Both the position numbers and the translations under genes were made by a program. The notes under the pieces are model-generated. The model was not told the origin of the DNA. It saw nothing but the letters and a program-made list of their open reading frames with translations, and made no database searches. This document shows positions 27,913 to 31,583 of a stretch of DNA of 64,000 bases, piece after piece. Each line of letters starts with the position of its first letter. Position 1 is the first letter of the stretch. The stretch lies in assembly GCF_007474605.1 (NCBI RefSeq), contig NZ_VHKL01000005.1:186001-250000 (forward strand). The letters run 5' to 3'. Origin of the DNA: Rhodoligotrophos appendicifer. GTDB taxonomy: Bacteria > Pseudomonadota > Alphaproteobacteria > Rhizobiales > Im1.

Positions 27913-28461
27913 GTGGAAAGAGTGCAGCAAACGATCGAGCTTAGCGATGAACCCGTAGAGGTCGTGCGGGTTGCCGGATTCGTTAAGTGGTTTGATATGG
28001 TGAGGGGCTATGGCTTTATCATTCCTGATAATGGCATGCCTGATGTTCTGCTTCATCTCAGCTGTTTGAAGCGGGATGGGTATGGGGCTGTCTTGGAGGG
28101 AACCCGCGTCATTTGCGAGGCGGTCCGCCGCCAGAAAGGCTTCCAGGCCTCCCGGGTGCTTGCGGTGGACACGACGACCGCCATCCAGCCGGCACCGCGA
28201 ATGCCGCGGACTCATGTGACGGTTACGCCGACGAGCGAATGGATCCCGGCCACCGTCAAATGGTTTAATCGGATTCGGGGCTTTGGATTCTTAACCTTGG
28301 GGGATGGATCCCCTGATATCTTCATCCATATGGAGACTCTGCGGAAGCATGAGATCCTCGAACTGCAGCCGGATCAGAATGTTCTGGTTCGCTTTGGAAC
28401 GGGTCCGAAAGGTTTGATGGCCGCCGAGGTAAAGTTGCCGGATGGGCCAGGGGACGAATGA
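27913..28461 (+). CDS. double cold-shock-domain protein
   Basis: 182 residues with two CspA-like domains. The first (about 20-90) has GFVKWFDMVRGYGFIIPD with DVLLHLSCL; the second (about 110-177) has ATVKWFNRIRGFGFLTLGD with DIFIHMETL. Each retains the RNP1/RNP2 nucleic-acid-binding aromatic residues, so it should bind single-stranded nucleic acid. Tandem cold-shock proteins are a common alphaproteobacterial form. Start is GTG 27913 or GTG 27922. Confidence 0.88.
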   Translation: MERVQQTIELSDEPVEVVRVAGFVKWFDMVRGYGFIIPDNGMPDVLLHLSCLKRDGYGAVLEGTRVICEAVRRQKGFQASRVLAVDTTTAIQPAPRMPRTHVTVTPTSEWIPATVKWFNRIRGFGFLTLGDGSPDIFIHMETLRKHEILELQPDQNVLVRFGTGPKGLMAAEVKLPDGPGDE

Positions 28462-28480
28462 GACGGATGGGATATCGAGG

Positions 28481-28972
28481 ATGACTCGCTCACGATGGTT
28501 CCGCCGCGCATCGGTGCCGGTCGTCCTGGTGTTGATGGCCGCTTTCCTGTGGGTGCAGCAGGCTCACGCACAGGAGGCTGCCAACGCGGACGGCACGGAG
28601 CCGGTCACCCTGGCGACGGATTCCGGCTATGTGGTGATCGCCGCTGAAGTGGCGCGCACGAGCGCCCAGAAGCAGCAGGGGCTGATGAACCGGGACAGTT
28701 TGCCGGAGGGCCGCGGAATGCTGTTCATCTGGGACAGTCCCGCCCCGGTGACCATGTGGATGCGCAACACACGGATACCCTTGGACATGATCTTCATCAC
28801 GGAGCACGGACTGGTGCATCGAATCGTCGAGAACACGGTGCCGTTCTCGGAGGAGTTCATCTCCTCCCATGGCGACGTGCTGGCGGTTCTGGAAGTGCGG
28901 GCCGGTGTCTCCCATCGGGTCGGCTTGCGCCCTGGGCACAAGGTGCATCACTCGACCTTCGAGAAGAAATAA
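28481..28972 (+). CDS. DUF192 family exported protein
   Basis: 163 residues from the ATG at 28481. Signal peptide (VLVLMAAFLWVQQAHAQ) followed by the DUF192 domain: RTSAQKQQGLMNRDSLPEG, MLFIWDSPAPVTMWMRNTRIPLDMIFI and VLEVRAGVSHRVGLRPG. It is likely periplasmic; no biochemical role is established for the family. It is often found next to cold-shock genes in this group, as here (19 bases apart). Confidence 0.88.
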   Translation: MTRSRWFRRASVPVVLVLMAAFLWVQQAHAQEAANADGTEPVTLATDSGYVVIAAEVARTSAQKQQGLMNRDSLPEGRGMLFIWDSPAPVTMWMRNTRIPLDMIFITEHGLVHRIVENTVPFSEEFISSHGDVLAVLEVRAGVSHRVGLRPGHKVHHSTFEKK

Positions 28973-28977
28973 CACGC

Positions 28978-31362
28978 CTATTCAGCAGCCATGTCGCCGC
29001 CCTCGGCGGCATGCTTGCGATGATATTCGGCCTCTACCTGGGACATCAACTCATCGGCGATGAGCTGCAGAAGCTTCCGGTCCCGCGCGGAGAAGCGTCG
29101 GGGCTTGGTGTCGATCACGCATAGCGAGCCCAACGGATATCCTGAGGCCGAGCGCAGGGGAGCCCCGGCATAGAACCGGATGCCCTTCTCCAGGAGGAAG
29201 GGATTTTGGGCGCATCGTGCATCTTTCGCCACGTCCGGAATGACCACGACCTCATTGGCGGCGACCACATGCCCGCAGATTGAGAGGGCTCGGACCGCTT
29301 TGCGCGAGGCTTCGAGATCCTCAGGCAATCCCACGGCGCCAGGCCACAACTGATCCTCCTCGTCGATGACCGATACGAGAGCGATGGGCGTGTCGAAGGC
29401 ATCGGCCACACGCCGTGCCAGGGCATCGAAATGGGCCCCCCGCGCCCGGGTCAGGCCAAGCTGCCGCAGGGCGTCGAGCCGCTCCTGCTCATTCTCTGGA
29501 ATAGGCGGCGCCTCCAATGTCTCGACCTCGACCTGTGGCGCGGCGGCTGCAATCTGTTGGGCGGCTTCGTTGAGGGTTGTCGCGAGGGCGTCTGCGCCCA
29601 GTTTGCGAGCGGCTTCCTCGCCCACAGCGGCTTCGGAATCGGCGTTCCAGAAGCAGACCACGATCTTGAGCTGCGGCGCCCGCCGCTTCAGCCGGCGGCA
29701 GACGTAGCGCGCGAATACCTGAGGCCGCGAGGTCAGATAGGACAGGCACACCACGTCGACCCCGGTGAGCTCGAGCTGATTGATGGCATCCTGGCTGACC
29801 GCCATCGGCGCAAGGACCTTGGACGCGATCCCGCGATCCGCCAGAACTTGGGAGACGATTTCTGACGCCGCTCGATCGAGCTCGGTGCGGCCGCCGATGC
29901 AGAGAATATTCGCGGGCCGTGCCGGCGTGCTCTGCGCGTCCGCAGCCTCCGGCTCGTCCTCGGGTTCGACCTCCTCGCCGGCCTCCTGTTCCGCGATCTC
30001 CTGCATGATCATGACCACTCCATCGGCGATGCGCCGGCGGTGGACGAGATCACCGGCATTGCGTTGCCGATCGTCTTCGGCGATGCGCAGGGCGGGCAGG
30101 GCGACCTGGTCATAGAAGCTCAGGGCGGAGTTCTCCTCCACATAACGCTCCGCGATCTCGAGCGCCTCCTCGCTATTGCCGGCGAGAAGCCGTTGATACA
30201 TGCGCTCTTCCGGGGCAAGCACGGGATCGCTGCCGAGCAGCACGCTGAGAAAATCGAGATGCGGAACATAGCGTCCGATCACGATGAGGCAGACGGTCAA
30301 CGGCGTCGCCAGGACGAGGCCGATCGGCCCCCACAGCGTCGTCCAGAAGATCGCCGCCATGATGATGGCCAGCGAAGACAGCCCCGTGCTCGCTCCGTAG
30401 AGCCACGGCTCCATCACATTGTTGCTGATCAGTTCGATGACGACGAACAGCGCTGCGGCCCAGATCAGCATGGACCAGCCGGGATCGACCGCAAACGCCA
30501 TGGCCATGGGCAGGAGCGCGGCGAGGAAGGGTCCCAGATAGGGGATGAACCGCAGGATCGCCGCCAGCAATCCCCACAGGATCGCATTCGGGATTCCGAT
30601 GAGATAGAGCCCGACGCCGATGGGGATGCCATAGGTGAGGTTGATGATGACCTGCATGAGCAGATAGCGACTGACCCGGTTCGCGGCTTCGTTGAGCGCT
30701 TCGGTGCTCTTCTGCAGGTCACCCCGGCCGACCAGCTTGATGAAGCGGTCTCGCAGGTCGTCCCGCTCCAGCAGGACGAAGATGACGAAGACGATGACGA
30801 TCCCCGCCATGGCCAGTGGCTTGATCAGCGGCAGACCGATGGCTTGCAGCAGCTCCAGCGGCTTGGGATCACCGCTCTCGATGATCACCGGAATGGCTTG
30901 CGGACCCTCGTCTCGGCTCGCTGTGCTTCCTGGCGTCTCTGCTGGCTTGGACAGATCCTCCGTGACCGCATGGAAGGTATCTTTCAAGCGGTCGAGGATC
31001 CCGTGTCCGTCGCCCGAGAGCTTGAGATCCTGCAGCTTCTGCCGCATCGTGGTCTGGTATGTGGGCAGGTTTTCCGCCAGCTGGACCAACTGGCTCCCGA
31101 CGGTCAGGGAGATGCCTCCGATGACCATGAAGGCCATGCTGACGGCCATCATCACCGCGATAACCCGAGGCACGCGCAGGCGCCGGAGCCAGTTGACGAT
31201 GGGGGTCAGGGCGAAGGCCAGCAGGATGGCCAGCGTGAAGGGGATGAAGATGTCGCTTCCGAAATAGAGGGCGACGATGACGACGAGGATACCGGCCGCC
31301 GTCAGCACCGATGAACCTGGAGCCGATGGACGCTCGATCGGCGCAGCAGTAGGATCCGACAT
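28978..31362 (-). CDS. AI-2E-type transporter fused to a B12-binding-like domain and a GAF domain
   Basis: 794 residues in three parts. Residues about 1-390 are a PerM/AI-2E family membrane permease (AGILVVIVALYFGSDIFIPF, IIMAAIFWTTLWGPIGLVLA), with eight or so membrane segments. Residues 483-605 form a Rossmann-like unit (ILCIGGRTELDRAASEIV, VDVVCLSYLTSRP, KIVVCFW) resembling B12-binding domains but without the DxHxxG cobalamin motif. Residues about 643-775 form a GAF domain (IALVSVIDEEDQLWPGAVGL, SICGHVV, FYAGAPLRS, LGSLCVIDTK). Transport substrate is unknown; the cytosolic tail suggests signal sensing. Confidence 0.82.
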   Translation of the reverse strand: MSDPTAAPIERPSAPGSSVLTAAGILVVIVALYFGSDIFIPFTLAILLAFALTPIVNWLRRLRVPRVIAVMMAVSMAFMVIGGISLTVGSQLVQLAENLPTYQTTMRQKLQDLKLSGDGHGILDRLKDTFHAVTEDLSKPAETPGSTASRDEGPQAIPVIIESGDPKPLELLQAIGLPLIKPLAMAGIVIVFVIFVLLERDDLRDRFIKLVGRGDLQKSTEALNEAANRVSRYLLMQVIINLTYGIPIGVGLYLIGIPNAILWGLLAAILRFIPYLGPFLAALLPMAMAFAVDPGWSMLIWAAALFVVIELISNNVMEPWLYGASTGLSSLAIIMAAIFWTTLWGPIGLVLATPLTVCLIVIGRYVPHLDFLSVLLGSDPVLAPEERMYQRLLAGNSEEALEIAERYVEENSALSFYDQVALPALRIAEDDRQRNAGDLVHRRRIADGVVMIMQEIAEQEAGEEVEPEDEPEAADAQSTPARPANILCIGGRTELDRAASEIVSQVLADRGIASKVLAPMAVSQDAINQLELTGVDVVCLSYLTSRPQVFARYVCRRLKRRAPQLKIVVCFWNADSEAAVGEEAARKLGADALATTLNEAAQQIAAAAPQVEVETLEAPPIPENEQERLDALRQLGLTRARGAHFDALARRVADAFDTPIALVSVIDEEDQLWPGAVGLPEDLEASRKAVRALSICGHVVAANEVVVIPDVAKDARCAQNPFLLEKGIRFYAGAPLRSASGYPLGSLCVIDTKPRRFSARDRKLLQLIADELMSQVEAEYHRKHAAEGGDMAAE

Positions 31363-31540
31363 TCATCATTCCTGAGGACACCCGCCTGCCAAATGGCACA
31401 GCTGCGGGATTAAGTTCATAAACGTTCATACGACGAATAAGATCCGCGCGCTGCCTTTGTGAGGGAACTGTCGCGCGTCACCGGTTTGCGCTTGCACACA
31501 GCCCTCTTATCTGGCACCAACCGATGGGTTTTACAGGTCA

Positions 31541-31583
31541 CGGGGCATAGCGCAGTCTGGTAGCGCACCTGGTTTGGGACCAG
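31541..31583 (+). tRNA. tRNA-Pro (UGG), 5' half only; left attachment site of the prophage
   Basis: From 31541 the sequence matches a proline tRNA through the acceptor 5' strand CGGGGCA, D-arm, and anticodon arm CCTGG-TTTGGGA-CCAG. Expected G at 31584 is C, and no T-arm (GGTTCGAATCC type) or 3' acceptor strand follows. The integrase gene ends 28 bases further on. The prophage therefore joins the chromosome at the anticodon arm, and the 3' half should be at the other end of the element, unless it is lost. Confidence 0.75.

What the first reader, a model, noticed from the sequence alone, without database searches (positions are those of the whole stretch)
28978..31362. Fusion of AI-2E-type permease, B12-binding-like domain and GAF domain
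A membrane permease carries two cytosolic sensor-like domains. The Rossmann unit lacks the cobalamin-binding DxHxxG, and the GAF domain is the type seen at sensor kinases. A permease whose activity is gated by two ligands would be new to me. Whether it transports AI-2 or anything else is unknown.
Basis: partly seen in the sequence, partly recalled or inferred. Interest (0 to 1): 0.55.

Follow-up and report, generated by a model that had tools for sequence, protein, structure and literature searches.

The report
Stress-linked permease with built-in sensors
A bacterial membrane transporter of the AI-2E family carries, probably on its inner side, a reshaped vitamin-B12-type module and a second sensor-type (GAF) domain; the design is shared by many bacteria and one relative was already touched on in print, but what it moves and what it senses remain unknown.

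Summary
ORF 28978-31362 (-, 794 aa) is an AI-2E permease fused to a cap-plus-Rossmann module of the cobalamin (CarH/AppA/MetH) fold and a GAF domain; the parts are modelled with fair to high confidence and match solved structures. It is not unique: the permease-cap-Rossmann fusion is in 85 of 397 sampled genomes of the order (my row count) and in other phyla; 30 of 98 members read have a GAF. One relative, 'HaAI-2E', was a negative control in a 2024 paper and bound only hydroxocobalamin (PMC11796333). Seen here: Asp at the cobalt-ligating His position in 96 of 97 members; a permease Arg/Glu signature; LuxS in 0 of 25 carriers examined; EcfG-type stress promoter sites upstream of many alphaproteobacterial copies, the window's in a variant form. 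Best reading: a stress-induced AI-2E-type permease tuned by cytosolic ligand sensing. Gating, ligand and substrate are inferred. New variant of a known kind, moderate interest.

The parts
28978..31362 (-). whole gene, 794 aa: AI-2E permease, cobalamin-type cap and Rossmann module, GAF
30280..31290 (-). AI-2E permease domain, residues 25-361, with R206, R229, R271, E318
   Evidence: Pfam PF01594 E 3.7e-48; TqsA 7nb6 E 2.3e-31, Z 23.6; these residues in 98 of 98 members
29977..30225 (-). four-helix cap of the cobalamin-type module, about residues 380-462
29911..29976 (-). acidic, probably flexible linker between cap and Rossmann unit, residues 463-484
   Evidence: pLDDT under 50 at 465-482
29542..29910 (-). 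Rossmann unit of the cobalamin-type module, residues 485-607, without DxHxxG
29875..29877 (-). Asp496 codon, in the position of the cobalt-ligating His
   Evidence: aligned to His of 8jbs and CarH; Asp in 96 of 97 members with a letter there, Asn in 1, His in none; codon checked
29032..29499 (-). GAF domain, residues 622-777, with the SICGHV Cys
31421..31445 (-). EcfG-type promoter-like site in variant form, GGATC-N16-CGTT, 58 bases before the start codon
   Evidence: on its own within chance in a 64-kb window, the support comes from relatives

Best explanation
It is an AI-2E-family membrane permease, probably a TqsA-like oligomer, whose C-terminus, on the cytosolic side if the topology is that of TqsA, carries a cobalamin-type cap-Rossmann module and a GAF domain. 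In alphaproteobacteria it is probably induced by the general stress response (sigma EcfG). Its transport is most likely tuned by what the two soluble domains bind: the corrinoid-type module, with a near-invariant Asp in place of the axial His, would respond to a corrinoid in a form other than AdoCbl or MeCbl, or to another ligand, and the GAF would add a second input or couple neighbouring subunits. The substrate is probably not self-made AI-2 and, by a printed signature, probably not Na+/H+; the invariant Arg residues of the permease hint at an anionic or polar solute. Shown here: domains, predicted folds, conservation, distribution, promoter-site enrichment. Inferred: induction, gating, ligands, substrate, topology, oligomeric state.
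For: Three domains with solved counterparts. The module stays with this permease across phyla; in the distinct frames without a GAF the tail after the Rossmann unit never exceeds 70 residues except in one frame with masked letters (75, 100 distinct frames in all). Asp496 in 96 of 97. R206, R229, R271 in 98 of 98 fused against 0 of 10 plain AI-2E rows, E318 in 98 of 98 against 1 of 10, so the permease looks like a subfamily of its own. LuxS in 0 of 25 carrier genomes examined. GGAAC-N16-18-GTT in 25 of 63 alphaproteobacterial upstream regions against 7 of 63 on the reverse strand and 0 of 32 non-alpha (2 of 32 reversed); seven control patterns gave 0 to 6 of 63 forward. GGATC-N15-17-CGTT in 11 of 63 against 0 of 63 reversed and 0 of 32, window included. 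NepR in 16 of 16 alphaproteobacterial carriers examined and 0 of 9 others. A printed relative binds hydroxocobalamin only (PMC11796333).
Against: No experiment shows that the domains gate transport. Both congeners in the sample have a copy without the GAF, and the GAF has decayed in several members, so the GAF is dispensable. Cap and Rossmann diverge strongly (21-52% identity to the window over 30 relatives). 3 of 8 plain AI-2E genes with a usable upstream region also have the stress-type site, so that link is not special to the fusion. 23 of 63 alphaproteobacterial members have neither form even loosely, and of the window and its five nearest kin only 4 of 6 have the variant form and none the standard one. 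Carriers outside the alphaproteobacteria lack NepR (0 of 9), so EcfG control cannot be general. No conserved neighbour names a pathway.
Confidence: 0.45

Rival explanations
1. Transceptor reading: the permease part senses a solute or membrane state, and the cap-Rossmann-GAF tail is an output that docks or sequesters a partner protein, as the related AppA SCHIC module does with PpsR2.
For: The closest folds include AppA SCHIC (Z 18.5-18.8, one entry being the AppA-PpsR2 complex 4hh3) and AerR (Z about 16); both are anti-repressors that work on a transcription factor (PMC10734443, passages).
Against: No conserved neighbour that could be the partner; the Asp in the ligand position is more conserved than the rest of the module.
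Confidence: 0.2
2. The tail is a structural remnant: it folds but binds no ligand and only helps oligomerisation, stability or placement.
For: GAF absent in two congeners and decayed in several clades; the axial His is lost throughout.
Against: Asp496 near invariant (96 of 97), R391 in 94 of 98 and R552 in 85 of 97 argue for a kept site; a relative binds hydroxocobalamin.
Confidence: 0.2
3. A cation/H+ antiporter of the UPF0118 type with regulatory domains, used in salt or alkaline stress.
For: Another branch of the family has this activity (PMC7221264 abstract and passages; PMC5379678 search listing); a stress-type promoter site fits.
Against: Of the printed signature, D251 corresponds to Arg271, R292 and R293 to Asn314 and Asn315, K298 to Trp320; E296 (E318) and S307 (S329) are kept (motif text aligned by eye; residues checked). 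The other four signature residues were not compared.
Confidence: 0.1
4. An autoinducer-2 exporter regulated by cytosolic sensors.
For: TqsA is the nearest solved structure.
Against: LuxS in 0 of 25 carrier genomes examined, while the control rings in 5 of 14 genomes; R229 and R271 are Ser and Asn in TqsA by the alignment.
Confidence: 0.03

Closest known systems
HaAI-2E, WP_052573826 (PMC11796333, FEBS J 2024)
   Same: AI-2E domain, cobalamin-type domain and a further C-terminal domain in one protein; no light signature; axial His absent.
   Different: The paper calls the last domain a diguanylate cyclase and places an Arg at the His position. In the Haloferula locus L043, which I take to be this protein or a near copy (not verified), the last domain is a GAF and the His position aligns with Asp. 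The window lies in another phylum and its own ligand is untested.
TqsA (E. coli), structure 7nb6
   Same: Permease fold, Z 23.6, 27% identity over 300 aligned residues.
   Different: The solved chain of 344 residues leaves no room for sensor domains; R229 and R271 are Ser and Asn there.
CarH, photocobilin and MetH cobalamin modules
   Same: Cap plus Rossmann fold over the module, Z about 13-19.
   Different: Asp instead of the axial His; fused to a membrane permease; the next domain is a GAF, not the phycobiliprotein-like biliverdin domain of photocobilins (PMC11796333, section 9).
AppA SCHIC and AerR
   Same: Same fold, Z about 16-19; regulatory, non-enzymatic use of the module.
   Different: Those are anti-repressor proteins (PMC10734443, passages); heme or cobalamin binding of the window protein was not tested.
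GAF domain of the diguanylate cyclase Dcsbis, 4zmu
   Same: GAF sequence and fold, E 1.5e-21, Z 24.2.
   Different: There the GAF is the N-terminal half of a cyclase; here it ends a permease.
UPF0118 Na+(Li+)/H+ antiporter (PMC7221264)
   Same: Same Pfam family.
   Different: Several signature residues are replaced.

Membership tests
AI-2E family (PF01594) | Profile match over the curated cut-off and TqsA-type membrane fold | tested here: met
   164.8 bits against a cut-off of 34.3; 7nb6 Z 23.6
AI-2E family (PF01594) | Export of autoinducer-2 (function of TqsA that named the family) | not testable with these tools
   No transport assay; indirect: LuxS in 0 of 25 carriers examined
UPF0118 Na+/H+ antiporter group | Signature D251, R292, R293 (PMC7221264) | tested here: not met
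   Arg271, Asn314, Asn315 by eye against the printed motifs; Arg271 in 98 of 98
Cobalamin-binding module (MetH/CarH type) | Four-helix cap plus Rossmann fold | tested here: met
   (predicted model)
Cobalamin-binding module (MetH/CarH type) | DxHxxG with the axial His | tested here: not met
   Asp in 96 of 97, Asn in 1, His in none
Cobalamin-binding module (MetH/CarH type) | Binds a corrinoid | not testable with these tools
   A printed relative bound hydroxocobalamin only
GAF domain (PF01590) | Profile match over the cut-off and GAF fold | tested here: met
Photocobilin | Phycobiliprotein-like biliverdin domain next to the cobalamin module | tested here: not met
   The next domain is a GAF by Pfam and fold
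SCHIC (heme instead of cobalamin) | Heme binding | not testable with these tools
   Fold similarity only, Z 18.5-18.8
EcfG general-stress regulon | GGAAC-N16,17-CGTT promoter and the PhyR-NepR-EcfG system | tested here: inconclusive
   The window has only the GGATC form; enrichment in relatives; NepR in the own genome (PhyR and EcfG not searched); no expression data

The most novel reading that the evidence does not exclude
A permease gated by the chemical state of cobalamin: a stress-induced AI-2E-type transporter whose cytosolic module, with Asp in place of the axial His, reads hydroxocobalamin (the oxidised or photolysed form) but not AdoCbl or MeCbl, and combines that with a GAF signal to open or close transport. 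It would be a membrane transporter controlled directly by corrinoid damage or redox state.
Probability: 0.1. Interest if true: 0.8.

Novelty: new variant of a known kind. Interest (0 to 1): 0.42.

Why it matters
AI-2E permeases ring in 13 of 14 well-known control genomes, yet what most of them move and how they are controlled is unclear. This branch carries its own soluble sensor-type domains and, in many alphaproteobacteria, a stress-type promoter site, so it offers a handle: find the ligand of the tail and the inducing stress, and the substrate question becomes testable. It also adds a case of the cobalamin fold kept with a conserved Asp instead of the axial His.

Tried and rejected
Rejected: (1) A spurious or unfolded C-terminus: models say otherwise. 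(2) A light sensor of the CarH or photocobilin kind: no axial His, and the printed relative was light-independent. (3) Bilin binding by the GAF: I saw no Cys-His at the phytochrome position by eye (motif recalled); not a formal test, and bilin-binding GAFs do appear among the lower-ranked fold matches (Z about 14-15). (4) A fusion private to the window: excluded. (5) A conserved operon: of 56 neighbourhoods, 46 were usable (in 10 the greedy ORF caller did not pick the target); no group of neighbours keeps a constant place. A cluster in 4 loci (two checked: DUF892) and one in 3 loci (one checked: BrkB) are the only hints of stress-type genes.

GAF history: on the quick tree of 98 rows the GAF label needs 7 changes, at least 5 forced by starred branches. 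The AI-2E GAFs lie on one side of a branch against 22 other GAFs, support only 60/93, not starred (21 of the 30 GAF members used, the 9 short decayed GAFs of family f5 left out by length). One ancestral fusion with repeated loss is the simplest reading, not proven.

Rows dropped: alignment A1 used the window and 30 of the 34 references (L058 for masked letters; L054, L061 and L019 as cut or broken). Of 100 distinct frames 98 were kept for conservation and tree (L045 and L054 out). Upstream tests used 95 of 98; alpha or non-alpha was assigned by hand from kinship codes and record titles, and one alpha row (L019) is a broken copy whose region lies inside the gene. One search counted 3 of 11 plain genes with the site; one search shows that one of the 11 is that broken fused copy and two had regions inside the gene, hence 3 of 8. 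The share 30 of 98 is not a frequency: I fetched chiefly long frames, and 9 of the 30 GAFs are decayed.

Full report
What is there. The gene at 28978-31362 on the minus strand encodes 794 residues. Pfam finds the AI-2E permease (25-361, E 3.7e-48) and a GAF domain (645-773, E 3.5e-14) clearly, and B12-binding_2 and B12-binding only weakly. Modelling the weak part alone, with an alignment of 21 sequences (the window and 20 relatives), gave a four-helix cap followed by a Rossmann unit (pLDDT 85.4, pTM 0.83). Against solved structures it matches photocobilin (Z 19.4), AppA SCHIC (18.5), the MerR-type 8jbs/8jbt (16.4), methionine synthase (16.2) and CarH (about 13-15). The full model matches TqsA over the permease (Z 23.6, 300 residues, rmsd 4.4) and the GAF of 4zmu (Z 24.2, 166 residues, rmsd 1.8). 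Relative placement of the domains is not resolved (pTM 0.57), and the permease loop at about 117-165 is poorly modelled.

The altered cobalamin site. A profile of the cap-Rossmann region finds 8jbs (E 6e-6), photocobilins (E 2.7e-4) and CarH (E 0.005), and aligns the family's RxxxD stretch so that Asp496 falls on the cobalt-ligating His. Over 98 members read, Asp stands there in 96 of the 97 with a letter, Asn in one, His in none; Arg492 is Arg in 74. This is a family-wide replacement, not decay in one gene.

A separate permease subfamily. In 98 of 98 fused members residues 206, 229 and 271 are Arg and 318 is Glu; among 10 plain AI-2E rows (three of them from the window's own genome, which has four further AI-2E genes) none has Arg at 206, 229 or 271 and one has Glu at 318. 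The plain rows are distant and few, so the exact columns carry some alignment risk. The printed signature of the Na+/H+ antiporter branch has Asp, Arg and Arg where the window has Arg271, Asn314 and Asn315 (PMC7221264, abstract and passages; aligned by eye).

Distribution and history. In 397 genomes of the order, 85 have a match at E 1.7e-19 or better by my count of the rows (the tool's tally of 195 at E 0.001 includes short weak Rossmann-type matches, which I do not count). At E 1e-10 the tally is 30 of 398 in the phylum sample and 11 of 240 in the phylum of Luteolibacter. The scan of named genomes returned 28 loci, among them Verrucomicrobiota, Planctomycetota, Alpha- and Gammaproteobacteria; one, L066, is only a plain AI-2E match. 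In frames without a GAF the tail after the Rossmann unit is short. On the tree the window sits with two congeners lacking the GAF (98*) inside a set of 15 rows of which 13 have it (96*), so a loss in the congeners is the simplest reading. The GAFs attached to these permeases group together only weakly (60/93). The window keeps the Cys of 'SICGHV'; its near kin L010, L073 and L088 have lost it, and family f5 has lost most of the first half of the domain.

Regulation and context. Upstream regions of alphaproteobacterial members are enriched for the EcfG-type site: GGAAC-N16-18-GTT in 25 of 63 regions, 7 of 63 on the reverse strand, 0 of 32 in non-alpha members (2 of 32 reversed), and 0 to 6 of 63 forward for the seven control patterns; shuffles of the 95 regions expect 1.2 with a site. 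The one-letter variant GGATC-N15-17-CGTT occurs in 11 of 63 forward, 0 reversed and 0 of 32 non-alpha. It includes the window (31421-31445), one of the two congeners and two of its three near GAF-bearing kin at 119-146 bases before the permease domain; L010 and L012 have none. No other single-letter variant of GGAAC has more than 3 forward. The base rate of either form in 30 alphaproteobacterial neighbourhoods is 0.03 per 400-nt region. The printed consensus is GGAAC-N16-CGTT or GAAC-N16,17-C/GGTT (PMC3892343 and PMC4814048, passages); the GGATC form is in no passage that those two look-ups returned. In the window taken alone the site is within chance (3 matches, 2.55 expected). NepR is encoded in the own genome and in 16 of 16 alphaproteobacterial carriers examined, 0 of 9 others. 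3 of 8 plain AI-2E genes with a usable upstream region also have the site, so stress control may be a trait of alphaproteobacterial AI-2E genes more widely. LuxS is absent from 25 of 25 carriers examined. No neighbour is conserved. A search of the window against Rfam gave one tRNA and nothing else, so no cobalamin riboswitch was found.

What is in print. One paper expressed a relative, WP_052573826 ('HaAI-2E'), as a negative control without the light signature. It describes AI-2E, cobalamin-binding and diguanylate-cyclase domains in an AlphaFold model, an Arg at the axial position, binding of hydroxocobalamin only, and no binding of AdoCbl or MeCbl (PMC11796333; passages and section 9 read). 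The short name suggests Haloferula, and locus L043 from Haloferula sp. BvORR071 has this architecture with a GAF at the end; I could not check the accession. Among the 100 distinct frames no tail without a GAF is long enough for a GGDEF domain. Searches for 'AI-2E family transporter' with 'GAF domain', TqsA with AI-2E and cryo-EM, and AI-2E with EcfG gave no paper; the search that found this paper is, and 'autoinducer-2 exporter' with cobalamin gave five papers, this one first. The library lacks most subscription journals, so absence from print is not claimed beyond these searches.

How it most likely works. A general-stress-induced AI-2E-type permease of a distinct subfamily, with the C-terminal module on the cytosolic side (inferred from TqsA), whose transport is tuned by ligand binding to the cobalamin-fold module and, where kept, the GAF. 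Domains, conservation, spread and promoter-site enrichment are shown. Induction in vivo, ligand, substrate and gating are inferred.

Verdict. The architecture is widespread, and one member was touched on in print, so it is a variant of a known family rather than a new kind of system. Interest is moderate because ligand, substrate and coupling are open and testable.

Noticed in passing
window 31541 to about 73,200 in window numbering (far end at L212:9210-9286): A tailed prophage of about 41 kb (integrase, SSB, primase, terminase, portal, head protease, capsid, tape measure, tail fibre) sits in a tRNA-Pro(TGG) gene right upstream of the permease: the first 43 bases of the tRNA are left at 31541-31583 and a full tRNA-Pro stands at the far end.
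   Followed up: yes
window 31421-31445 (-) and upstream of L011, L073, L079, L088, L090, L092, L096, L101, L114, L122: An apparent GGATC variant of the EcfG -35 element, recurrent before alphaproteobacterial copies of this gene and absent on the reverse strand.
   Followed up: partly
L024, L025, L031 (plain AI-2E genes): Plain AI-2E permeases of the order also carry EcfG-type sites, 3 of 8 with a usable upstream region, so stress control may be a broader trait of the family.
   Followed up: partly
L105-L112 and L116 (family f5 of the order): A branch of nine copies whose GAF has lost most of its N-terminal half, including the conserved Cys, but keeps the final part.
   Followed up: no
window 28442-28972 (+) and 27913-28461 (+): A DUF192 protein and a protein with two cold-shock-domain stretches lie convergent to the permease; their frames overlap by 20 bases.
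   Followed up: no
L019, L061, L063, L064, G228:C34 and G374:C1 matches: Several copies of the fused gene are split, shortened or cut by frame breaks; described only, not mended.
   Followed up: no
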